NCBI GenBank assembly: GCA_946891915.1
Contig: CAMPNN010000001.1
Coordinates: forward strand, 71,730-135,729
Direction: 5' to 3'
DNA from: an uncultured Bifidobacteriaceae bacterium
Lineage (GTDB): Bacteria; Actinomycetota; Actinomycetes; Actinomycetales; Bifidobacteriaceae
Length of the DNA: 64,000 nt
The translations under genes were made by a program, and so were the position numbers. The notes under the pieces are model-generated. The model was not told the DNA's origin. It did no database searches and saw only the letters and a program-made list of their open reading frames with translations. Each line of letters begins with the position of its first letter. Positions within the stretch are counted from its first letter, which is position 1. Of the stretch, positions 2,172 through 63,537 are shown piece after piece.

Positions 2172-2182
2172 GATGGGTCTCC

Positions 2183-2319
2183 GTTTCTTCCATCCGGACT
2201 GTAACCGTTGGCTTCGGATTTTAACCGAATCAGCAGCTTTTACGCCGCTCGCGGGCTTCAAAAAACGCGTAAAATACGTTTTTGTTACCGCCAGTAAGGA
2301 TTTTCACCTTCCCTGAAAC
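2183..2319 (-). promoter_or_regulatory. FMN riboswitch (RFN element)
   Basis: Read on the minus strand, the conserved RFN blocks appear in order: AGGGAAGGTGAAAATCC, CTGGCGGTAA, GCCCGCGAG, GATTCGGTTAAAATCCGAAG, then ACAGTCCGGATGGAAGA. The closing helix P1 is GTTTC (2319-2315) with GAAAC (2187-2183). The GGAG ribosome site of ribU is immediately 3' of P1 (2182-2179). I see no U-tract terminator between aptamer and start, so control at translation is more likely. High FMN would reduce RibU and ATPase synthesis. Confidence 0.96.
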
Positions 2320-2395
2320 TACTATTCTTTTGTATCTCATGCTAGGAACATTGTTTAGACAATCGTGTGGCGAGGGTAAGTGCAAGAATACAAGT

Positions 2396-5674: not shown

Positions 5675-7933
5675 TTACATTAGCGTAAGCCACGAGCGAA
5701 CCATATACCACAAGTCTGGGTTAAAGCGAAGAGTACTATCTTCACGGCCTGTAACGAACCAGCTCAATGCTGCAATAATAATAGAAACCAGCAATAAAAC
5801 TAAAATTACTGTTCGAAGTAAGTAAACGAATGTTTTTTTGCGCAAAGAATCTTCTTCTTGAACTGTAGCATTTTCCAGAAGAAGCGTAATGCCAACAACT
5901 GCAACAATTGCAAAAGACCAAGCAAAATCAGCAATATAACGCCAGCCAATTCCAGCTTTCAGACTGTCGAAAACAATAAGCACAACTCCTATTACTAAAG
6001 ACGTTACACAAGTGTGCCAAGCAACGCTTAAATGGCAGCGTTTTCGCATAATAAAAGCAAATATTACTCCTAGTAAAGCGAGCGGAGAAAGCACGAACAT
6101 TCCGCCAATCATAGGCTCAGCGTACTGCCATCTGTCAAAAGATACGGGCTGAATACCAATCCAAGGAAAAGTTGGAATAAAACGCAAAGGTAACGCAATA
6201 TAGCTAAAAATAGACGGCAAAATATTTTGCGAAGGCAAACGCATAGTCGTCATATCGGTAATAGTGATTTGATATTCGTTACCAAAGTTCAAAGCGGATC
6301 CGAAACGAAGGAAATTATATAATCCAAACGGAATCGCGGTAATTATGCAAGGAAGAACCCAAGCTGAAACGTATCGCAAAAGCTTATGCCAAAAATCGGG
6401 CTTGTTAAAAATCTTAATAAGATTAGAAAAATCTTTTTTAATATTATGGCAAGTATTAAGGCAGGTATTGAGGCAAGTAGGGGAGAAAGTGTGAGAGAAG
6501 GTATGAGAGAAAATAACTGGTATTGCAAAAAGAACAGCTATAACAAACGTAGGGCGGCAACCCAAGTTCAACGTAATAAAGAAAGAGCCGAGAATAATAT
6601 TTCTTAAAGGATGCGCTTTTAATGCACCAAGGTAGAACCATATGCCAATAGCGGTGAAGAAAAGCGAAGCTGCCATTGGAACAGAATAGAATGATGTTCT
6701 AAACCACAAATAAACAGTATTTGCGCTAATAAAGAACAGTGCTAACGCAATTGATACTGTTCCCAATGAAACGCTTTTTGAAGTTTGCTCAATAATTCGA
6801 ATAACAAGCAAAGACCCTGCAATAAGAAAAGCAATCAGAAACACAAGAGTTGCAACAGTGGTTGGAAGCATTGCGCCTCCAGGAATCCAAATACTAGTAA
6901 TAATTCGATACGGCAAAAACAGTAATACTGCAGGAAGCACGCCAAAATACGAATACCAGTGTCCTTTATAATATGCGTAATCCCAGTACATGTTGTGCAC
7001 GTAACGGTCAAGAAGATTATTCCTAGCCATAGGATCATAAGGATTTTGCAATTGAGCTAATTCGTGAGGAACCGGAAGATTAAGATGCACTTGACCTTTT
7101 AGAAGAGCGTCTGCTGTGTGAGCGTACTGGTCGAAATCGTAAGTGTAATTTCCTGCAGTGTCAAAATGCATTGGCGTAGCGTTACGCAAATTCCAAATAA
7201 TTGTTGCTACTCCAATAGCAATAAACGGCAACCAAGATAACGCAAGATACAAGCGCTGGCGTAAACAACTAGTGTCTAATTTAATGCGCCAAAGCTTAGA
7301 CCATGGATTCCATAAAGCTATAAGCATTGCAAAAACAACAAGAAGTCCTACTCGCCCCCAAGACCAGCTAAAAGGCGCTCTAACATTCGCTCTAGCATCT
7401 TCAATGTCAAGTACTGTTCCTAAAGGATGCTGCAGCCATACTCGCACGATGCAAGGTTGGCCGATTGCTTCTTCTGGAAGTGTTAATAAAGAAGCGCCCA
7501 ATGCGCGAGGATTCGTGCTTTGAGGCTCGCTCATATACTGGTTTGCTTCAACTCGAACATGAATATCGTAAGCAATTTTATTATTCGTATTTGTTTTCTG
7601 CGTTTTAATATTTGCAGGTTGCAGACGAATATAAGGTGATGTGCCGTCTGAAGTCACCTCCAAGTACGCTTCAGACGGGTCTGTTATAAGAAGACCTCCA
7701 GAGCTAAGGCGTTTAATACCGCTTCCAAGAGTATTGTGTGCGGATACGCTATCGGTGCTGCCGGTAACACTATTCCAAAAAGGAAGATTTCCAATAGAGC
7801 ACTCAAATAGCGTAATAAAAATCAGTATTAGCAAAGGAATACGCAAAAAATTCCATGCGCGTCGCATGTAACTACTATGAGTGCCGTTACCGCGATTATT
7901 ATCGCCAGATACTTGCGGCAAATCTTTACACAT
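5675..7933 (-). CDS. Large polytopic membrane protein, probable GT-C glycosyltransferase-like
   Basis: About 750 residues with one N-terminal membrane segment, an extracytoplasmic domain of roughly 150 residues, then about ten further hydrophobic segments. The stretch YDFDQYAHTADALLKGQVHL followed by DYAYYKGHWYSYFG resembles the first large outer loop of uncharacterised GT-C-like envelope proteins, where an early acidic pair is catalytic. I do not recognise a specific enzyme. Possible starts are GTG 7951, ATG 7933 and ATG 7867; none has a convincing ribosome site, and ATG 7933 is a compromise. A degenerate tetrapeptide array lies near residue 480. Together with the GT2 gene it may serve surface glycan synthesis. 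Confidence 0.6.
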   Translation of the reverse strand: MCKDLPQVSGDNNRGNGTHSSYMRRAWNFLRIPLLILIFITLFECSIGNLPFWNSVTGSTDSVSAHNTLGSGIKRLSSGGLLITDPSEAYLEVTSDGTSPYIRLQPANIKTQKTNTNNKIAYDIHVRVEANQYMSEPQSTNPRALGASLLTLPEEAIGQPCIVRVWLQHPLGTVLDIEDARANVRAPFSWSWGRVGLLVVFAMLIALWNPWSKLWRIKLDTSCLRQRLYLALSWLPFIAIGVATIIWNLRNATPMHFDTAGNYTYDFDQYAHTADALLKGQVHLNLPVPHELAQLQNPYDPMARNNLLDRYVHNMYWDYAYYKGHWYSYFGVLPAVLLFLPYRIITSIWIPGGAMLPTTVATLVFLIAFLIAGSLLVIRIIEQTSKSVSLGTVSIALALFFISANTVYLWFRTSFYSVPMAASLFFTAIGIWFYLGALKAHPLRNIILGSFFITLNLGCRPTFVIAVLFAIPVIFSHTFSHTFSPTCLNTCLNTCHNIKKDFSNLIKIFNKPDFWHKLLRYVSAWVLPCIITAIPFGLYNFLRFGSALNFGNEYQITITDMTTMRLPSQNILPSIFSYIALPLRFIPTFPWIGIQPVSFDRWQYAEPMIGGMFVLSPLALLGVIFAFIMRKRCHLSVAWHTCVTSLVIGVVLIVFDSLKAGIGWRYIADFAWSFAIVAVVGITLLLENATVQEEDSLRKKTFVYLLRTVILVLLLVSIIIAALSWFVTGREDSTLRFNPDLWYMVRSWLTLM
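6448..6507 (-). repeat. Five degenerate 12-bp units coding tetrapeptides
   Basis: Five consecutive 12-bp units on the plus strand: ggcaagtattaa, ggcaggtattga, ggcaagtagggg, agaaagtgtgag, agaaggtatgag. In the minus frame they code SHTF, SHTF, SPTC, LNTC, LNTC inside a loop of the membrane protein. The frame is preserved. Confidence 0.85.
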
Positions 7934-56125: not shown

Positions 56126-56201
56126 TGGAGCGGACAACGGGACTCGAACCCGCGGTCTCAACCTTGGCAAGGTTGCGCTTTACCAACTAAGCTATGTCCG
56201 C
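56126..56201 (-). tRNA. tRNA-Gly(GCC), CCA encoded
   Basis: On the minus strand the acceptor GCGGACA pairs with TGTCCGC, the anticodon loop TTGCCAA gives GCC, and the T-loop is GGTTCGAGTCC. The discriminator is T and the 3' end CCA is encoded. The body is identical to the second copy at 63465. Confidence 0.97.
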
Positions 56202-56254: not shown

Positions 56255-56294
56255 GTAAGCCTTGCAATAACTTGATCGTACTTGCAAGGCTTAC
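56255..56294 (-). terminator. Strong hairpin after thiG
   Basis: A 13-bp perfect stem GTAAGCCTTGCAA (56255-56267) with TTGCAAGGCTTAC (56282-56294). It lies between the thiG stop and the tRNA. The U-tract is poor on the minus strand, yet position and stem strength suit the end of the TPP operon. Confidence 0.7.
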
Positions 56295-56328: not shown

Positions 56329-57096
56329 TTACTTGCTTTCGTCGTCACGCTTTGGAGAAGATGGCGTTGCAGCCTTTTCAAGGACTCGACCAGGGCCTGC
56401 AAGATAAGCTGCGCGGCCTGCTTCAATACCAAGCTTAAAAGCTTTGGCCATAAGCACAATATCTTTTGCGGTAGCAACGCCAGTGTTTGCCATTACTGCA
56501 GCAGCACCCATTTCCATAGCTTCAGCAGCCTGGCTTGGTACTCCAATGCCGGCGTCTACAATAACAGGAAGATCAATCTCATCAATAATAAGCTGAATGA
56601 ACTTCTTAGTTTCCAAACCCTTATTTGAACCGATCAAAGATCCAAGAGGCATAATTGCTGCGGCGCCTGCGTCGCGCATGGCTTTAGCAAAGTACAAATC
56701 TGGGTACATGTAAGGCAAAACAGTAAAGCCTTCGTCAGCCAAAATTTTCGTTGCCTGCAAAGTGGCCTCATTGTTTGGAAGCAAATATTTGCGGTCAGGG
56801 ATAATCTCAAGCTTAATGAAGTTGCCGCAACCCATTTCGCGAGCAATATGAGCCGTATTCACTGCTTCTTCAACATTTACGCAGCCGCTAGTATTTGGCA
56901 AAATAGTAACGCCTTCTGGAATATGCTTCAAAATTCCGGCAGCCTTCTCACTGTAGCGAATTGCTACGGTAATCATTTCCGCCTTAGCGCTATTTACTGC
57001 AGCGTCAATAAGCTCTTCAGAATACTTTCCGGAACCCAAAATGTAGCGAGAAGTAAACTTCTTACCGCCCAATTCCAAATAATCTTCATTCTCCAT
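56329..57096 (-). CDS. thiG: Thiazole synthase
   Basis: A 255-residue TIM-barrel enzyme that builds the thiazole phosphate ring from deoxyxylulose 5-phosphate, ThiS-thiocarboxylate and dehydroglycine. Motifs: [22 protein letters not shown], the KLEIIPD segment with the Schiff-base lysine, [20 protein letters not shown] and [14 protein letters not shown] 57096 follows GGAGG and overlaps the thiF stop by 11 bp; an ATG at 57108 is less likely. Neither ThiH nor ThiO, the usual dehydroglycine sources, is encoded beside it. Confidence 0.96.
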
Positions 57097-57709
57097 AATT
57101 TCCTCCATTTTTAATCCATTTTAATGCTTCCAAAGCTTCTAAACTGGCAATAATTGAAACGTAAGGCAAATATAAGCCTTCTTCGGGTGAAGACTTAAAA
57201 TCACCTACTAAACACACGTTACCAGCATGTTTAATTTTAATGTTCCTAATATCTCCCAGTCCAGATAATCCAGAAGCGGTAATTACATATTTATTTGGAT
57301 GGTTCATGAAATAATCAAGAACCATAGATTTTGATTCGCGATTGTCAAACGCTTCAATAAACAAGTCGGAACGTTCAACAATCTCATCTAACGATTCTGG
57401 CGTAACTTTTTGAACAAAAGCTTCTACTTCAACATACGGCAAAGTTTCATTTAGGCGCGCCTTAGTTGCATTTACTTTGTGTTGTCCAACTTCGTGCATC
57501 GTATAATTTTGACGGTTCAAATTTGAGTATTCTATAGTGTCAAAATCATAAATGTAGAGTTTTCTTACGCCAGCTCGCGCGAGCATTAAAGCAATGTTCG
57601 AACCTAAACCGCCGCAGCCAAGTATCGATACTGATTGTTTAGAGAACAGATCATTATCTTCTTTTAGCTGACGTTTAAGAACTTTTGCGCGAATGTCGTC
57701 GTTTTCCAT
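57086..57709 (-). CDS. thiF: ThiF-type sulfur-carrier adenylyltransferase
   Basis: A 207-residue E1-like enzyme that adenylates the C-terminus of ThiS. The nucleotide motif is SILGCGGLGSNIALMLARAG, followed by YIYDFDTIEYSNLNRQNYTM. It is shorter than E. coli ThiF and lacks the C-x2-C zinc pairs, as in the compact ThiF type of Firmicutes and others. It lies between thiS (3 bp gap) and thiG (11-bp overlap), which fixes its partners. Confidence 0.92.
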   Translation of the reverse strand: MENDDIRAKVLKRQLKEDNDLFSKQSVSILGCGGLGSNIALMLARAGVRKLYIYDFDTIEYSNLNRQNYTMHEVGQHKVNATKARLNETLPYVEVEAFVQKVTPESLDEIVERSDLFIEAFDNRESKSMVLDYFMNHPNKYVITASGLSGLGDIRNIKIKHAGNVCLVGDFKSSPEEGLYLPYVSIIASLEALEALKWIKNGGNYGE

Positions 57710-57712
57710 GAA

Positions 57713-57910
57713 TCATCCCCCTCCCATAATGCTAAACACTTCAATTTTTGCATTATCTTTAACAATGAAAGTTCCAAAATCGTCGCGTTTGACCAGTTTG
57801 CCATCAACAGATATTGCAACGAAAGTAGTGTCGTAGCCTTCGCGTTTAAGTAGATCAAGCAAAGTTTCACCTTCAACGTACTCAACCATGTCGTGATTCA
57901 GCTTAAGCAT
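57713..57910 (-). CDS. thiS: Sulfur carrier protein ThiS
   Basis: A 65-residue ubiquitin-fold protein ending in the obligatory Gly-Gly (IMGGG), here Gly-Gly-Gly. ThiF adenylates it and a cysteine desulfurase supplies sulfur, giving the thiocarboxylate used by ThiG. ATG 57910 follows AAAGGAGGG; an in-frame ATG at 57925 would include this ribosome site. It starts 48 bp after the allantoinase gene. Confidence 0.92.
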   Translation of the reverse strand: MLKLNHDMVEYVEGETLLDLLKREGYDTTFVAISVDGKLVKRDDFGTFIVKDNAKIEVFSIMGGG

Positions 57911-57957
57911 TATCCCTCCTTTCATATAGCACTATCATACTTTATGACAACTTAGGT

Positions 57958-59334
57958 TTAACGCTGAGCTGGATGAAGAATAAACTTTCCTCTAAAATCT
58001 TTAGTAACACCGTTTTCTTTACTATAAATTTCTTCACCGCGAAGCAAAGTTCTTACAACCTGGCAGCCAATAGTGCGACCAACGTATGGGCTGAACTTGT
58101 TACGATACTCAAGATCTTCAGCTTTAAGAACATATGGAGCATTTGGCTTAATGAAAGCAAGATCTGCGTCGTAGCCTAAGCGGATGCTTCCTTTGCCTTT
58201 CAAATCGAAACGCTCTGCAGAATTCCTTGAGTTCAACGCCACAAATTGCGTCAACGACATTCCGCGTTTTTGCACTGCCTCATCGAAGAATACGTCAACA
58301 TCGTTCTGAACGCTTCCAATGCCTCCCCAAGCTGTGAATGCATCGTCGGTTTGCTTCAAACTCAAAGGAGCTGGAGAGTGATCGGACACGATGAAATTAA
58401 TAGAACCATCGAAAACTTTTTCCCACAAGCCATTCTGATTTTCCTTATCGCGAATTGGCGGAGTGCACTTAGCAATATTGCCAATTTCGTCGAGTTCAGA
58501 AGTGTCAAAATAAAGGTAATGGTTACAAGTTTCGCAGCTTACATCTACGCCATTTTTACGAGCGTCAGCAACAGCTTGAGCGCCTTCTGGAGAAGAAACG
58601 TGCACAATGTGAATTCGGCATCCGGTTTCCTTAGCAAAAATGCATGCGCGCACAATAGCTTCAACCTCAGTAAAAACAGGCCTTGTAGCTACAAATTCAG
58701 AAAGCTTGCGCGCTCCCATTTGATGAGCTTTCTTGCCAAGCTGATCCGTAATAGGAGCATTTTCGCAATGCATGATCAAAATTTTGCCGGTTTTTGCAAT
58801 CTGCTGCATGCCAGTGTATAGGGAATAATCGTCGCAATTGTACAAATCAACTTGCAAATCCTTGTCGCCGGTAGTGCCGAGGAATGCTTTGTAATTAACA
58901 ACACCCTGCTTATCTTGTTCGTTAATTCCGCCGTCCAGATTCTGCGGCTCCAAACCACCAGTTTGGCCAACGTCAACCTTAAGTTTTCCATCTGCTTCTT
59001 CAAGTACTGCTTCAAAAGACTTTCCATCAGTAGTTGCAGGAATCTGATTGCAAGGCATCTGAAGCATTGTAGTAATACCGCCCTTTGCGCCTGCAGAAGT
59101 GGCAGATACGAAACCTTCCCAATCGTCGCGCACTCCACCGCCAGGAGCGTTAATATGAACGTGGGAATCAACCTTTCCAGGAACAACTATTAAACCAGTT
59201 GCGTCAATAGTTTTTTCTGCGGTAAAGTTGCTTCCAAAAGCAGCAAACTTGCCGTCTTTAATAGCTACATCTGTTTTAGTTGCTTCGTTATCGAACACAA
59301 CTAAACCGTTGGTAACAACTACATCGTAGTTCAT
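57958..59334 (-). CDS. allB: Allantoinase
   Basis: A 458-residue cyclic amidohydrolase that opens allantoin to allantoate. Metal-site residues are visible: DSHVH (His58, His60), the carbamylated lysine in YKAFL (Lys149), MHCEN, HIVHVSS and SDHSPAP. From memory of the E. coli AllB sequence, long stretches agree (ATRPVFTEVEAI, WGGI, FDEAVQKRGMSL, SPYVGRTIG), which favours allantoinase over dihydropyrimidinase or hydantoinase. ATG 59334 follows AAAGGAAA. It lies between the permease and thiS in the TPP-controlled operon, an unexpected partner for thiamin genes. Confidence 0.88.
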   Translation of the reverse strand: MNYDVVVTNGLVVFDNEATKTDVAIKDGKFAAFGSNFTAEKTIDATGLIVVPGKVDSHVHINAPGGGVRDDWEGFVSATSAGAKGGITTMLQMPCNQIPATTDGKSFEAVLEEADGKLKVDVGQTGGLEPQNLDGGINEQDKQGVVNYKAFLGTTGDKDLQVDLYNCDDYSLYTGMQQIAKTGKILIMHCENAPITDQLGKKAHQMGARKLSEFVATRPVFTEVEAIVRACIFAKETGCRIHIVHVSSPEGAQAVADARKNGVDVSCETCNHYLYFDTSELDEIGNIAKCTPPIRDKENQNGLWEKVFDGSINFIVSDHSPAPLSLKQTDDAFTAWGGIGSVQNDVDVFFDEAVQKRGMSLTQFVALNSRNSAERFDLKGKGSIRLGYDADLAFIKPNAPYVLKAEDLEYRNKFSPYVGRTIGCQVVRTLLRGEEIYSKENGVTKDFRGKFILHPAQR

Positions 59335-59374
59335 TTTATTTCCTTTCTTTAGCCATTGTTGGCTGAAAATTTTT

Positions 59375-59455
59375 GTTAGTTTTTCTGATTTGTTAGTTTT
59401 TCTGATTTGTTAGTTTTTCTGATTTGCTAGTTTTTCTGATTTGCTAGTTTTGGTA
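59375..59455. repeat. 17-bp tandem units across the permease stop
   Basis: Units gttagtttttctgattt start at 59375, 59392, 59409 and 59426, with a partial fifth at 59443. The stop codon of the permease gene (59427-59429) lies in the fourth unit. As 17 is not a multiple of three, the units downstream of the stop would be read in different frames if the stop were lost. Confidence 0.92.
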
Positions 59456-60923
59456 ATTTTGGTAATTTTGATAGCAGTACTTGTAGCACAAAACCAGCTG
59501 CGAATCCTACAATCCAAGAGATTTTAGTAAGTGACGCAAAAGCAGGAATAAACTGCCCCGAAAGAGCTAGCAAAAGACCAAGAATTGTCGAAATATACGA
59601 TTTCAAATTCGTGCCAGAATAGGCTGATTCTTTCACTAAATCTGAATCTTTCGTATTGTAATACAACTGGTCAAGATCTATTTTGCAATGCTTTACTATG
59701 TAATAATCTGCAAGTAAAACACCGGCAATAGGCCCTAAAAGCATGCCGATAATATTCAAGAAACCAGTAATATTAGCCATAAACTTCCATGGCATTAGCA
59801 GAGTGCTTATAAGAGCTGCGATGATTACGCCACGCTTATAATTCACAAATCGCGGAGCTAAAGCAGTTAGCTGATACGCTGCAGGAACAATATTTCCAGT
59901 AGCGTTTGTGCAAACTGTAGTAAGCAAAAGCAAGCCAGTAGCTACAGCAATTGCAGGAAGATTATCCCACTTATTTATGATAACTAGCACATCTGTAATA
60001 GTTTCACGGTAAAAAAGTGAGCCTCCAACTAAAATAACCACGCTTGTAAAAGCAAAAAGCGCGTAGCTTAGCAGAAAACTTGCTACTTGGCCCTTAACCT
60101 GCGCAACAGTAGATTTCGCATTCTGCGTAAAATCAGCAATGGAAACAGCAGGAGCAGCCCAAACGCCCAACACGGAATTTACAATCATCATCATGAAAAG
60201 CCCGATGCCGCAATTAGCTGGAGTTTGAACCGTTGCATGATACTGCATAATCGCAGATAATCCGCCTGCACAGCTGATAGCCCATACACTCATGCAGCCA
60301 AACACAATGTAAATGAGAGGGCTAAGCACAACAGTAAGTTTATTTAGTGCTCCGCCTCCGCCTAAACCAATCGCCAAGTTAAGCAACCAAAATATTAAGA
60401 AGGAAATAATAATAGGTATATGCGAACCGACAAATGGTATTTTGCTTCCAAGCGTAAGAAATTCAGGGCAAATTTTTCCGACGAGAATCTCTAAAGCTTT
60501 TGCGCCAATATATGTTTGAATTCCATACCAGCATATTGCTGCAACTACTCCCCTAAGGAATCCTGGTAGTTGAGCGCCTGCTTTTCCGTATGTTGCGCGA
60601 AGATGCATAGAAAATGGTATGCCGTACTTAGAGCCGACCACTCCGTTTACAGACATAACAATTGCCGTAAGTATTGCGCCAAGCATAATGCCAAGCATTA
60701 TTAGCATTGGTGAGTAGCCCATAATTAAGAATGCGCCAACCGCAGCGTAATTGGGAATGTTATGAACTGATTGCATCCAAAGAGTACAAAAATTCAATGC
60801 GCTCATTGTACGTTTTTCTTTCGGCTTCGGCAACAAATCATCATTTGTATATCCGCGCTCGCGGTAGCAGTCTAATTGTTGACTATTTACTGGCTCGTCT
60901 TGCAGCAGCTTACTAATTTGCAT
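59427..60923 (-). CDS. NCS1 family permease, probable allantoin transporter
   Basis: A 498-residue transporter with about 12 membrane segments. MSALNFCTLWMQSVHNIPNY opens the core; the TM3 segment AICWYGIQTYIG has Trp and Gln four residues apart, as in hydantoin and allantoin carriers of NCS1 (Trp117/Gln121 in Mhp1). The family imports allantoin, hydantoins, uracil, cytosine or the thiamin pyrimidine (CytX), so the last is an alternative. ATG 60923 follows AAGGAGGT. It lies downstream of an attenuator-like structure (61041-61138), between allC and allB. Confidence 0.85.
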   Translation of the reverse strand: MQISKLLQDEPVNSQQLDCYRERGYTNDDLLPKPKEKRTMSALNFCTLWMQSVHNIPNYAAVGAFLIMGYSPMLIMLGIMLGAILTAIVMSVNGVVGSKYGIPFSMHLRATYGKAGAQLPGFLRGVVAAICWYGIQTYIGAKALEILVGKICPEFLTLGSKIPFVGSHIPIIISFLIFWLLNLAIGLGGGGALNKLTVVLSPLIYIVFGCMSVWAISCAGGLSAIMQYHATVQTPANCGIGLFMMMIVNSVLGVWAAPAVSIADFTQNAKSTVAQVKGQVASFLLSYALFAFTSVVILVGGSLFYRETITDVLVIINKWDNLPAIAVATGLLLLTTVCTNATGNIVPAAYQLTALAPRFVNYKRGVIIAALISTLLMPWKFMANITGFLNIIGMLLGPIAGVLLADYYIVKHCKIDLDQLYYNTKDSDLVKESAYSGTNLKSYISTILGLLLALSGQFIPAFASLTKISWIVGFAAGFVLQVLLSKLPKLPKLANQKN

Positions 60924-61040
60924 GTGCACCTCCTTACTTTTAATGCTTTGTAAATTTGTTTCATTTGTGTTGTAGTTCTTTTGTTTTTGGTTTTTGTGTT
61001 TTGCTTTTAAGTTTTTGAAAAAGAGTCGCAACTTTGCCCA

Positions 61041-61138
61041 AAAATAAAAAAGATACGAAAGGATATCGTACCCGTGGTGGTGCGCCCCTTCGTATCAGCC
61101 TCTTATTCGTGAATAAGTGTTGTACTCTCATTCGATAT
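61041..61138 (-). promoter_or_regulatory. Leader-like structure with intrinsic terminator upstream of the permease
   Basis: On the minus strand: possible P1 ATATCG/CGATAT (61138-61133 with 61068-61063), a perfect P2 hairpin CTTATTC/GAATAAG (61117-61102), then the terminator GATACGAA/TTCGTATC (61096-61089 with 61059-61052), extended by GG/CC and followed by T6-A-T5. The 5' arm of the terminator lies inside the possible aptamer, so the two folds exclude each other. It matches no riboswitch class I can name; a plain terminator is the simpler reading. Confidence 0.55.
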
Positions 61139-61223
61139 TCACTTTTCTTCGCCGCGATTAATTAGGCAGTGAAGTTTGCATCGTATTTGGCTTTTGTGCC
61201 TTCCTTCAGTTTTTACTTCTTGC

Positions 61224-61287
61224 TTTTAGTTTTAATTTTTAGTTTTAATTTCTAGTTTTAATTTATAGCTCAATTTTTAGTTCTCAT
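61224..61287. repeat. 13-bp tandem units across the allC stop
   Basis: Units ttttagttttaat start at 61224, 61237 and 61250. A diverged unit starts at 61263 and another at 61275. The allC stop (61277-61279) lies in the last unit. Confidence 0.88.
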
Positions 61288-62518
61288 AAGCCAAGCTATG
61301 TAACGCATCTCGTAAAAGCTTTACTCCATGAACGGCATCTTGTGGATCCGTGTACTCTTCTGGAGCGTGGCTAATACCATCTTTCGAAGGAACAAAAATC
61401 ATTCCGGACTTTACGAAAGGTGCAAAAATTTGCGTATCTTGGCCAGCGCCTGAATGCATAACTCTGTAAGCGTAACCCTGCTGATCTGCTTGATCTTTCA
61501 AAAGATTTATAATATCGTCACTAAGCGGTGTAGGGTCATCCGACATCCATTTGTCAATCCGCGCTGTAATACCATAAGCGTTTGCAGTTTTATGAATGTC
61601 ATCATCGAGTTCTTGCAAGAATTTATCAAGAAAAGCTTTGTCCGTGTGACGGCAGTTCATTGAAAAAGTGACCTCGCCTGGGACAATGTTTACCTGATTT
61701 GGTACCACGCTTATGCGACCAAAGGTGAGTACGAGAGGATCTCCTGCTTGCTTTGCTTTGTCGAGATTTTTGGAGATTATATGCGTCATGCAATCTACGG
61801 CATCGTGTCGGTAAGACATCATAGTTGTTCCAGCGTGGTTTTGCACACCTTTAAGATTAATATCCCAACGATGCTGACCAGCAATGCTAGTGATAATGCC
61901 TAAATCTTCGTGGTTGCTGTAAAGCGTTGGTCCCTGCTCAATGTGCAGCTCAATCCAAGCTTCGAGATTTGTAAACTTAGGTTCAGTGGTTTGATAATTG
62001 AACCCAGCTTCGCGCATAGCTGCTTCAAAAGGAACGCCTTCGCTATCGCAAATATTCTCTACATCTTCTTTTTTAGCAAGTCCAAAAAAGTTTTTTGAAC
62101 CCCAGAATACGTATGGGAAACGTGAGCCTTCTTCTTCTGCTAAGCAAATAATACGCAAACTCTTCTTTGGTTTTCCGTATCTAGTAAGTAAATTTTTTAC
62201 TGCTAAATAAGCTGCAACTATACCAAGCTGGCCGTCAAAACGACCTCCTCTTGAAACTGTGTCAATATGCGATCCGCAAGCTATTACGCTTTCAGGTTCT
62301 TCGCTTCCTTCAACAGTTGCAATCAGGTTTCCAACTGAGTCGAATTCTACGGTCATGCCGAGTTTTTCAAAACGTTGGCGAAGGGCGAAAAGAGCTTGTT
62401 TCCAAGATTGTGTATAAAGAGGGCGAGTAACTCCTGGTTCCCCCGGCTTCTCTGTGAATCCTGCAAGCCAGCTTATAGCAGATTCGATAGTTTCAGCATT
62501 GATGCTGCTATTAATCAT
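61277..62518 (-). CDS. allC: Allantoate amidohydrolase
   Basis: A 413-residue M20-family metalloamidase that converts allantoate to ureidoglycine, ammonia and carbon dioxide. Metal and substrate motifs: GSHIDTVSRGGRFDGQLG, EEEGSRFPYVFWGSKN, ELHIEQG, NHAGTT, NIVPGEVTFSMNCRHTD. From memory of E. coli AllC, agreement is long and close. One oddity: the usual SGAGHDA reads SGAGQDT (His to Gln). ATG 62518 follows GGAGG at an 11-bp distance; GTG 62557 is an alternative. First gene of the TPP operon; N-carbamoyl amino acid hydrolases are relatives. Confidence 0.86.
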   Translation of the reverse strand: MINSSINAETIESAISWLAGFTEKPGEPGVTRPLYTQSWKQALFALRQRFEKLGMTVEFDSVGNLIATVEGSEEPESVIACGSHIDTVSRGGRFDGQLGIVAAYLAVKNLLTRYGKPKKSLRIICLAEEEGSRFPYVFWGSKNFFGLAKKEDVENICDSEGVPFEAAMREAGFNYQTTEPKFTNLEAWIELHIEQGPTLYSNHEDLGIITSIAGQHRWDINLKGVQNHAGTTMMSYRHDAVDCMTHIISKNLDKAKQAGDPLVLTFGRISVVPNQVNIVPGEVTFSMNCRHTDKAFLDKFLQELDDDIHKTANAYGITARIDKWMSDDPTPLSDDIINLLKDQADQQGYAYRVMHSGAGQDTQIFAPFVKSGMIFVPSKDGISHAPEEYTDPQDAVHGVKLLRDALHSLAYEN

Positions 62519-62556
62519 TTTGCAGTATTCCTCCTTCTTTGGTTGAGTATTTTCCA

Positions 62557-62607
62557 CAAAACTGTAGTTTACGAAGCTGTAGTTCGCAAAACTGTAGTTT
62601 ACGAAGC
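62557..62607. repeat. 15-bp units in the allC leader
   Basis: caaaactgtagtttacgaag occurs at 62557 and 62587, 30 bp apart, and the intervening gctgtagttcgcaaa is a diverged unit, which makes three 15-bp units. They lie between the riboswitch and the coding start. Confidence 0.85.
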
Positions 62608-62748
62608 AATGTTGGATTGTGCTTTCAGTTTTGTTTTATTTAGTTTTGCTTTAGTTTTATTTAGTTAGTAGATACTTGTGTAATTGTTGCTTCGTTGCAG
62701 CATGCACGATACCACGAAAAATCGTGATAGAAAGAAATCACTTACTGT

Positions 62749-62823
62749 AATTGCTCCCTACGCATGTCTTAACAAAACAGGTTCAAAGGGTATTTCTCAA
62801 CTGTTTCCAGTACCCCTGCAATT
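62749..62823 (-). promoter_or_regulatory. TPP riboswitch (THI element)
   Basis: On the minus strand: closing helix AATTGC/GCAATT (62823-62818 with 62754-62749), P2 with GGGTA/TACCC, a P3 hairpin ACTG-GAAA-CAGT, then TTGAGA, TTTGAACCTG, GTTAAGACATGCGTAGGG. These are the ordered conserved blocks of the thiamin pyrophosphate aptamer. Downstream, AGTGAT/ATCAC followed by GATTTTT may be a weak terminator. It controls the allC-permease-allB-thiSFG operon. Confidence 0.95.
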
Positions 62824-62841
62824 TTCACTTGTACTCGGTTG

Positions 62842-62869
62842 AGTATAGCACGATACTAAACGAACGCAA
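62842..62869 (-). promoter_or_regulatory. Promoter of the TPP-controlled operon
   Basis: On the minus strand: -35 TTGCGT (62869-62864), 16-bp spacer, -10 TATACT (62847-62842), with an extended -10 TG one base upstream. The predicted start lies about 10 nt before the riboswitch. The leader to allC is about 315 nt. Confidence 0.8.
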
Positions 62870-63464: not shown

Positions 63465-63537
63465 AGCGGACAACGGGACTCGAACCCGCGGTCTCAACCT
63501 TGGCAAGGTTGCGCTTTACCAACTAAGCTATGTCCGC
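63465..63537 (-). tRNA. tRNA-Gly(GCC), second copy
   Basis: The body is identical to the copy at 56126-56201, with anticodon GCC. Here the discriminator T is followed by CTA, so CCA is not encoded. It is first in the tRNA cluster in transcription order. Confidence 0.97.

What the first reader, a model, noticed from the sequence alone, without database searches (positions are those of the whole stretch)
56329..62869. TPP-riboswitch operon joining allantoin breakdown with thiamin thiazole synthesis
One promoter and TPP aptamer precede allC, an NCS1 permease, allB, thiS, thiF and thiG, all on the minus strand with short gaps. Seen in sequence: aptamer motifs, gene order, ThiS Gly-Gly, AllB metal residues. 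Known: allantoin genes are normally controlled by purine or nitrogen regulators, and TPP riboswitches control thiamin genes. A thiamin signal controlling allantoin uptake and hydrolysis suggests that allantoin feeds a thiamin precursor here.
Basis: partly seen in the sequence, partly recalled or inferred. Interest (0 to 1): 0.92.

Follow-up and report, generated by a model that had tools for sequence, protein, structure and literature searches.

The report
Ureide-fed thiazole operon in Gardnerella
A vitamin B1 operon in Gardnerella-type bacteria carries allantoin-uptake and allantoin-cutting genes where relatives carry the enzyme that supplies one building block of the vitamin, so purine waste may be turned into vitamin B1 without oxygen.

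Summary
A TPP aptamer (62738-62827, minus strand) heads allC, an NCS1 allantoin permease, allB, thiS, thiF and thiG. The permease and allB thus sit under two thiamin-type signals. In 110 of 112 thiG loci fetched from other Bacillota, thiG is followed by thiH (106) or a ThiO-like gene (4); the other two end at the contig edge. In the Gardnerella operon and two Aerococcus christensenii-like loci neither is there; allC, allB or an allB remnant is. ThiH and AllE were not found in any of these five genomes, nor ThiO over its cut-off in the Aerococcus-like one. Linked AllC proteins share changes at otherwise invariant residues. Best reading: allantoin to allantoate to ureidoglycine to 2-iminoacetate, the ThiG substrate, an oxygen-independent replacement for ThiH/ThiO. 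The last step is chemical inference, and Gardnerella also keeps a ThiO operon. My ten literature searches listed no paper on this. It offers one answer to a published gap, the unknown iminoglycine source of some bacteria.

The parts
62842..62869 (-). probable promoter TTGCGT-16 nt-TATACT
   Evidence: read from sequence; TATACT invariant in 5 leaders; weak -35, not listed by the scan
62738..62827 (-). TPP riboswitch aptamer
   Evidence: RF00059, 59.4 bits; nearly invariant in 5 leaders
61277..62518 (-). allC-like amidohydrolase, 413 aa (allantoate to ureidoglycine, inferred)
61041..61111 (-). terminator-embedded element of the thiS-motif (HMP-PP riboswitch) type
   Evidence: own covariance model built without Gardnerella or Aerococcus sequences: 45.1 bits, E 9.1e-9; no Rfam match on this strand
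59427..60923 (-). NCS1 permease, allantoin-permease type
   Evidence: NF008476 684.1 bits against 620
57958..59334 (-). allB, allantoinase
   Evidence: TIGR03178 535.8 against 357.85; six metal-ligand positions kept
57713..57925 (-). thiS, sulfur carrier ending GGG
   Evidence: TIGR01683
57086..57709 (-). thiF, ThiS adenylyltransferase of the short (fam2) type
   Evidence: NF006395 and TIGR02354 over cut-off
56329..57108 (-). thiG, thiazole synthase
   Evidence: PF05690 317.8 bits; 99% identical in G001-G003; nested among Bacillota ThiG
56255..56294 (-). inverted repeat downstream of thiG, possible end of the transcript
   Evidence: read from sequence; no T run follows
56129..56201 (-). tRNA-Gly(GCC), one of two identical copies flanking the operon (the other at 63465-63537)

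Best explanation
The operon makes the thiazole half of thiamin and takes the two-carbon/nitrogen piece of the ring from ureides instead of from tyrosine (ThiH) or glycine plus oxygen (ThiO). Shown: gene content, a TPP aptamer at the head, a thiS-motif-type element between allC and the permease, no ThiH found in the relatives' genomes, replacement of thiH at the locus, purifying selection. Inferred: the NCS1 permease imports allantoin; AllB opens it to allantoate; the AllC-like enzyme hydrolyses allantoate to (S)-ureidoglycine; ureidoglycine loses urea, on its own or at an active site, to give 2-iminoacetate (dehydroglycine), or its breakdown products glyoxylate and ammonia recombine to it; ThiG joins this with DXP and ThiS-thiocarboxylate. 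Regulation, inferred from the known classes: TPP switches the operon off; HMP-PP in excess lets transcription run on into permease-allB-thiSFG, so allantoin uptake rises when the pyrimidine half waits for a thiazole partner. In Gardnerella this would be an oxygen-free supplement to the native ThiO operon; in the Aerococcus christensenii-like genome it may be the only source.
For: ThiG of the ureide-linked loci in the tree (11 rows) is one clade (99*) nested among other Bacillota ThiG. Around 112 other Bacillota thiG loci (all 114 places except the two of G120) 106 have thiH directly downstream (coverage at least 0.84, identity at least 29%), 4 an adjacent ThiO-like FAD oxidoreductase, 2 end at the contig edge, and none has allC or allB within the stretch fetched. 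ThiH: 0 of 112 genomes of the genus; none in G001-G004 or G120, over cut-off in 4 of 4 genomes chosen as positive controls. AllE: none in G001-G004 or G120, found in 3 of 3 catabolic controls. Second element, same type as upstream of thiS elsewhere; the published class is said to associate exclusively with HET-P genes (PMC6478431, parts read). Different architecture TPP-2HADH-allC-element-DAACS-thiSFG, and a second locus with an allB remnant before thiSFG. AllC, AllB and ThiG of a further unnamed lineage show the same longest-contig length, 132220. AllC of Gardnerella and of G120 group together apart from catabolic AllC, 100*. dN/dS 0.009-0.136 for all six genes. Ureidoglycine is unstable, and one paper proposes that at 60 C it would decay to glyoxylate, ammonia and urea (PMC4016543, passages); dehydroglycine is the ThiG precursor and hydrolyses spontaneously to glyoxylate (PMC9046217, passages).
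Against: G001-G004 also carry thiO-thiS-thiG-thiF, so the ureide route cannot be strictly needed there. AllC misses the AllC equivalog cut-offs, and in 10 of 10 linked proteins an otherwise invariant His is Gln, with further changes nearby in sequence to presumed active-site motifs, so its substrate may not be allantoate. G120 has no intact allB at either thiG locus; its 2-hydroxyacid dehydrogenase and DctA/GltP-type transporter do not fit an allantoin route without further assumptions. G120 does hold an FAD oxidoreductase that matches ThiO at 120 bits, below the cut-off of 250.8. Formation of 2-iminoacetate from ureidoglycine is not documented in what I read. The window's own genome is not held, so ThiO, ThiH and AllE were counted only in relatives. 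No expression or biochemical data.
Confidence: 0.62

Rival explanations
1. The operon serves thiazole synthesis, but the AllB/AllC pair acts on another hydantoin or carbamoyl compound, and its product (glyoxylate plus ammonia, glycine imine, or glycine for ThiO) rather than ureidoglycine reaches ThiG.
For: His to Gln at AllC 360 in 10 of 10 linked proteins against His in 120 of 120 others, plus Asp288Asn, Lys216His and Ala226Gln; long stem of 1.19 changes per column under the clade; linked AllB also has its own fixed changes; G120 keeps AllC but no intact AllB at its thiG loci, with another transporter and a 2-hydroxyacid dehydrogenase.
Against: The permease and AllB pass allantoin-specific cut-offs, though AllB misses the stricter NF005960; the zinc-site motifs of AllC and all six AllB ligand positions are kept.
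Confidence: 0.22
2. Allantoin is used as a nitrogen source; the genes came under thiamin control by chance when a cassette joined a thiSFG operon.
For: The nearest AllB relatives outside Gardnerella found in the genome scan lie in ordinary catabolic clusters with allE-, allD- and PucR-like genes; the operon occupies a variable site between two tRNA-Gly genes.
Against: No AllE in G001-G004 or G120; AllD, PucG and FdrA were not searched genome-wide. A related pairing occurs in an Aerococcus christensenii-like genome with other partner genes, and probably in a third lineage; the permease and allB sit behind an HMP-PP-type element; thiH is missing exactly there.
Confidence: 0.1
3. The M20 hydrolase salvages a thiamin breakdown product, as YlmB does for formylaminopyrimidine (recalled).
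For: YlmB-type deacylases are M20 enzymes found in thiamin regulons (recalled).
Against: AllC scores 530 bits to allantoate deiminase but 34.6 to the ArgE/DapE deacylases; no HMP-salvage gene is recognised in the operon; the element class marks HET-P genes (PMC6478431).
Confidence: 0.04

Closest known systems
thiS-thiF-thiG-thiH operons of Bacillota, some with the thiS-motif element upstream of thiS
   Same: same ThiG, ThiF and ThiS types; same leader element in 12 of 37 loci searched; thiS-thiF-thiG order as in L043
   Different: thiH is missing; allC lies upstream of the element, permease and allB between the element and thiS
ThiO route (thiO-thiS-thiG-thiF, native to Gardnerella)
   Same: feeds the same substrate to a ThiG; TPP aptamer just upstream in G001 and G002
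   Different: glycine oxidase that needs oxygen; a different ThiG (37% identical); no ureide genes
Allantoin catabolic clusters (as in L005, L006)
   Same: the first two enzymes and the permease, same order allC-permease-allB
   Different: no AllE in the thiamin-linked genomes tested, no PucR-like neighbour, thiamin riboswitches instead, thiSFG downstream
Tandem TPP + HMP-PP riboswitches (PMC6478431)
   Same: two thiamin signals on one transcript
   Different: here the switches are separated by a gene, so allC would answer to TPP alone

Membership tests
TPP riboswitch (RF00059) | covariance-model score over the gathering cut-off | tested here: met
   59.4 against 54.3 bits; L001-L004 57.7-58.4; L028 55.0
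TPP riboswitch (RF00059) | expression platform that answers to TPP | tested here: inconclusive
   no terminator listed right after the aptamer; leader folds gave no clear switch
HMP-PP riboswitch (thiS motif) | conserved aptamer embedded in an intrinsic terminator, upstream of HET-P genes | tested here: met
   model from 10 thiS-upstream copies finds the window copy at 45.1 bits, E 9.1e-9; paired cells 90.0% against 74.8 shuffled, on an alignment fitted to the model
HMP-PP riboswitch (thiS motif) | match to the published consensus; ligand HMP-PP | not testable with these tools
   consensus figure not held; no Rfam hit on this strand to E 10
Allantoinase AllB | TIGR03178 cut-off and metal-ligand residues | tested here: met
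   535.8 against 357.85; H59 H61 K146 H186 H242 D315 (positions recalled) kept in 7 of 7 linked and 119 of 119 other proteins. Misses the stricter NF005960 (626 against 688)
Allantoate amidohydrolase AllC | equivalog cut-off | tested here: not met
   507.6 against 597.75 (TIGR03176) and 530 against 532 (NF006768); filed as AllC-like only
Hydantoinase/carbamoylase family amidase | TIGR01879 cut-off | tested here: met
   430.1 against 204
Canonical bacterial thiazole pathway | an iminoacetate source ThiH or ThiO beside thiSFG | tested here: not met
   none in this operon or the two G120 loci; a separate ThiO operon in G001-G004
Allantoin catabolism | ureidoglycine processing by AllE | tested here: not met
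   0 of 5 thiamin-linked genomes, 3 of 3 controls; other downstream enzymes not searched

The most novel reading that the evidence does not exclude
A third, oxygen-independent route to the ThiG substrate: ureides (allantoin or allantoate) are cut by a specialised AllC clade so that 2-iminoacetate is released, in step with ThiG, replacing ThiH and ThiO in some Actinomycetota and Bacillota of the human urogenital tract (habitat recalled). Purine oxidation waste becomes a vitamin precursor under two thiamin riboswitches.
Probability: 0.55. Interest if true: 0.93.

Novelty: new variant of a known kind. Interest (0 to 1): 0.86.

Why it matters
The bacterial ThiG pathways described in the papers I read take 2-iminoacetate from ThiO or ThiH. 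A survey of gut bacterial genomes left 89 genomes, 62 of them Bifidobacterium, with no known source of this precursor (PMC6593275, passages). This operon would be a concrete third source, testable by complementation, and would join purine waste to vitamin synthesis in bacteria that live on people. It also places transport and hydrolysis of allantoin under an HMP-PP-type riboswitch.

Tried and rejected
Rejected: that thiG is broken in NR021 (L004); the apparent breaks lie at runs of N in the assembly. Rejected: that the allC-permease terminator is a plain or chance hairpin; it is conserved in 6 of 6 loci with the operon (window, L001-L004, L028) and occurs upstream of thiS elsewhere. Rejected: that such AllB is common in the genus; of 112 genomes 14 match at 1e-40 and only G001-G004 exceed 39% identity. 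Led nowhere: Rfam on the second element; promoter and terminator scan; leader folding for a TPP expression platform. Not pursued: structure prediction of AllC, because distances in a model cannot be measured here.

Limits of the counts. The pattern search gave 34 matches with up to 3 mismatches, many of them chance; one is a row of an alignment file. Of the 12 Bacillota copies, nine are the model's own training copies, and L018 is the tenth; one search also listed 12 weaker matches of 28.7 bits or less, among them L040, L041, L029 and L005-L007, which look like ordinary terminators. Of the ten linked AllC proteins six were read beside thiSFG (window, L001-L004, L028); P0241-P0244 were added by their identity (75-94%) and, for two, by shared contig length, so their grouping is partly by choice. 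Of the seven linked AllB four were read in context and P0121-P0123 were added by identity. AllB comparison left out L004 (gap), P0130 (fragment) and the L029 remnant. The AllC and AllB trees used every fourth of the other homologues; the ThiG tree took only loci whose ThiG came out among the longest non-overlapping ORFs, so most of the high-GC bifidobacterial ThiG are missing from it. Alignment A4 holds one row (L055, + strand) that is the reverse strand of a true copy.

Literature: ten searches, listings seen (call: listed of found): 11: 20 of 41; 12: 20 of 31; 54: 12 of 26; 55: 15 of 62; 56: 15 of 44; 57: 15 of 42; 58: 15 of 93; 66: 1 of 1; 67: 1 of 1; 102: none found. Thiamin + allantoate + riboswitch gave one paper, a yeast genome; TPP riboswitch + allantoin one, on Candida; HMP-PP riboswitch + allantoin none. 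Only open-licence PMC papers are held. One Gardnerella paper names allantoin utilisation among strain-specific virulence factors (PMC9549249, one passage), without thiamin; another says clade 2 of G. vaginalis lacks enzymes of thiamine biosynthesis (PMC5881158, passages).
Full report
WHAT IS THERE. On the minus strand between two identical tRNA-Gly(GCC) genes (56129-56201 and 63465-63537) lies one gene run: probable promoter (62869-62842), TPP aptamer (62827-62738), allC (62518-61277), a terminator-embedded element (61111-61041), an NCS1 permease of the allantoin type (60923-59427), allB (59334-57958), thiS (57925-57713), thiF (57709-57086) and thiG (57108-56329). Three further tRNA genes lie upstream. 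The window comes from a Gardnerella-like member of the Bifidobacteriaceae: its AllB is 96-97% identical to that of four Gardnerella-type genomes, while LigA is only 73-80% identical. No whole genome is held for the window.

THE SECOND SWITCH. Within it about 50 nt are nearly identical in five Gardnerella-type loci and in an Aerococcus christensenii-like locus whose neighbouring sequence and transporter differ. A pattern search of the fetched loci showed the same core (GGGG, a short spacer, CACCACC, two bases, GGGT, then the closing arm and a T run) upstream of thiS in thiSFGH operons of other Bacillota (chance matches also listed there). I built a covariance model from ten such copies, nine from Bacillota and one from Bifidobacterium, none from Gardnerella or Aerococcus. 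It finds the window copy at 45.1 bits (E 9.1e-9), the four other Gardnerella-type copies at 43.0-45.8, the Aerococcus copy at 51.7, and copies upstream of thiS in 7 of 7 bifidobacterial thiG loci fetched (32.6-54.1 bits; L018 is a training copy); 12 further matches in that call are weak, 28.7 bits or less. Of 37 Bacillota loci searched 12 have a sense-strand copy with E under 1e-6, nine of them training copies. Pairing is kept with changes on both sides in 15 of 21 pairs (alignment fitted to the model). Published work describes such an object, the thiS motif or HMP-PP riboswitch: an aptamer embedded in an intrinsic terminator, ON with HMP-PP, about 30% directly downstream of TPP switches, said to associate exclusively with genes for HET-P making and use (PMC6478431: outline, parts 1 and 2 of 9 of the main section, and passages). 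The consensus figure is not held, so identity with that class is a strong inference. The held text has no occurrence of allant-, Gardnerella or Aerococcus.

THE SWAP. A search of 398 Bacillota genomes with this ThiG gave 112 genomes and 114 places. I fetched all 112 places other than the two of G120. In 106, thiH lies directly downstream on the same strand within 600 nt (coverage at least 0.84, identity at least 29%); in 4 an FAD oxidoreductase of ThiO type is adjacent; in 2 thiG ends at or near the contig edge; in none was allC, allB or the permease found in the stretch fetched. ThiG of the ureide-linked loci in the tree (window, L001-L003, both G120 copies, P0001-P0004, P0006) is one clade (99*) inside a group that holds Anaerococcus- and Peptoniphilus-named ThiG. 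In G214 (L043), the one relative of that group read in context, the order is thiS-thiF-thiG-thiH. The simplest history is loss of thiH with gain of ureide genes.

A DIFFERENT ARCHITECTURE. One of 76 genomes of the Aerococcaceae group has this ThiG. G120 has two loci. In L028: TPP aptamer (7753-7842, 55.0 bits), a D-2-hydroxyacid dehydrogenase, allC (77% identical), the element, a DctA/GltP-type transporter, thiS, thiF, thiG. In L029: thiSFG preceded by a C-terminal remnant of allB and an nadC-like gene (my reading of the sequence). In G120 ThiH was not found, the best ThiO match has 120 bits against a cut-off of 250.8, and AllE was not found. AllC is thus the ureide enzyme that both intact arrangements share. 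A third lineage is suggested by three proteins whose longest contig has the same length, 132220 bases: ThiG P0002 (87%), AllB P0122 (81%), AllC P0243 (75%); a fourth by ThiG P0003 and AllC P0244 (59773). I could not read those contigs.

IS IT CATABOLISM? L005 and L006 show the ordinary setting: allC-permease-allB with allE- and allD-like genes and a PucR-like regulator nearby, a PucG-like gene in L005 and an FdrA-like one in L006 (my reading; the ORFs of L007 were not listed), and no TPP aptamer at the gathering score in L005-L007. In G001-G004 AllE was not found. AllD, PucG and FdrA were not searched genome-wide. Without AllE the chain would stop at ureidoglycine, which is unstable; one paper proposes that at 60 C it decays to glyoxylate, ammonia and urea (PMC4016543, passages). 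That it passes through 2-iminoacetate by loss of urea is my chemical inference.

ENZYME CHANGES. Ten thiamin-linked AllC proteins (six read in context, four added by identity) form one clade with 100* support and a long stem of 1.19 changes per column. Fixed differences against 120 other AllC proteins include His360Gln (120 of 120 His), Asp288Asn (120 of 120 Asp), Lys216His (118 of 120 Lys) and Ala226Gln (110 of 120 Ala, 10 Ser). The His is also present in the plant ureidoglycolate hydrolase and the hydantoinase-family chain printed. The motifs GSHIDT, DGQ, EEEGSRF, LHIEQG and ISH, which hold the zinc site (recalled), remain. So the enzyme is specialised; whether its substrate is still allantoate is open. 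Linked AllB is likewise one clade, with all six ligand positions kept and 21 fixed differences.

SELECTION AND SPREAD. Between the window and L001-L003, dN/dS is 0.009-0.136 for all six genes; in each pair synonymous divergence of the operon genes (0.37-1.36 overall) is below that of the two flanking genes (1.38-2.80), as expected if the operon moved among Gardnerella after the species split. In two Gardnerella-like genomes without it (G084, G113) an alcohol dehydrogenase-like gene sits between the same two tRNA-Gly genes; in a third, G112, one tRNA-Gly lies beside that gene in the stretch fetched. Of 112 genomes of the genus 4 carry this AllB, 10 carry ThiO over the cut-off and 0 a ThiH match at E 0.001 (in one search the model rang over its cut-off in 2 of 14 named control genomes).

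AGAINST. G001-G004 keep thiO-thiS-thiG-thiF, so the ureide route is an addition there, plausibly for oxygen-poor conditions, since glycine oxidase needs oxygen (PMC9046217, passages). Dehydroglycine hydrolyses spontaneously in water and is thought to need shielding on its way from ThiH to ThiG (same passages), so AllC and ThiG may have to cooperate. The G120 operon lacks an intact allB; it might import allantoate, and its 2-hydroxyacid dehydrogenase might reduce leaked glyoxylate; both are guesses. No TPP expression platform could be identified.

KNOWN OR NEW. [quoted passage not shown] an earlier survey notes that only two of 15 predicted actinobacterial producers had ThiH or ThiO (PMC4403557, passages). 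No paper in the listings of my ten searches (several listings capped) is about allantoin enzymes feeding ThiG. The other bifidobacteria have thiazole genes behind the same element but no ureide genes at the loci fetched, so this operon does not solve their case.

Noticed in passing
L016, L017, L018, L019, L020, L021, L023: Bifidobacterium thiazole operons carry the thiS-motif-type element upstream of thiS, yet the genus shows no ThiH (0 of 112) and ThiO over cut-off in only 10 of 112 genomes, those with the Gardnerella-type thiO operon: the iminoacetate source of the others is unknown.
   Followed up: partly
L028:7893-8852: A D-2-hydroxyacid dehydrogenase is the first gene of the TPP-headed thiazole operon of G120; role unknown, glyoxylate removal is a guess.
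   Followed up: partly
L029:8612-8887: C-terminal remnant of allB directly before thiSFG, with an nadC-like gene next to it: a decayed second copy of the ureide-thiazole arrangement.
   Followed up: partly
window 56129-56201 and 63465-63537; L040, L041: Two identical tRNA-Gly(GCC) genes flank a site of variable content: the thiazole operon in some Gardnerella-type genomes, an alcohol dehydrogenase-like gene in others.
   Followed up: partly
window 2178-2324: FMN riboswitch on the minus strand, 97.4 bits.
   Followed up: no
L012:8318-11386 and the matching loci L013-L015: Native thiO-thiS-thiG-thiF operon with a ThiG only 35-37% identical to the one in the window; TPP aptamers over cut-off lie just upstream in G001 and G002, none at the gathering score in L012 of G003.
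   Followed up: partly
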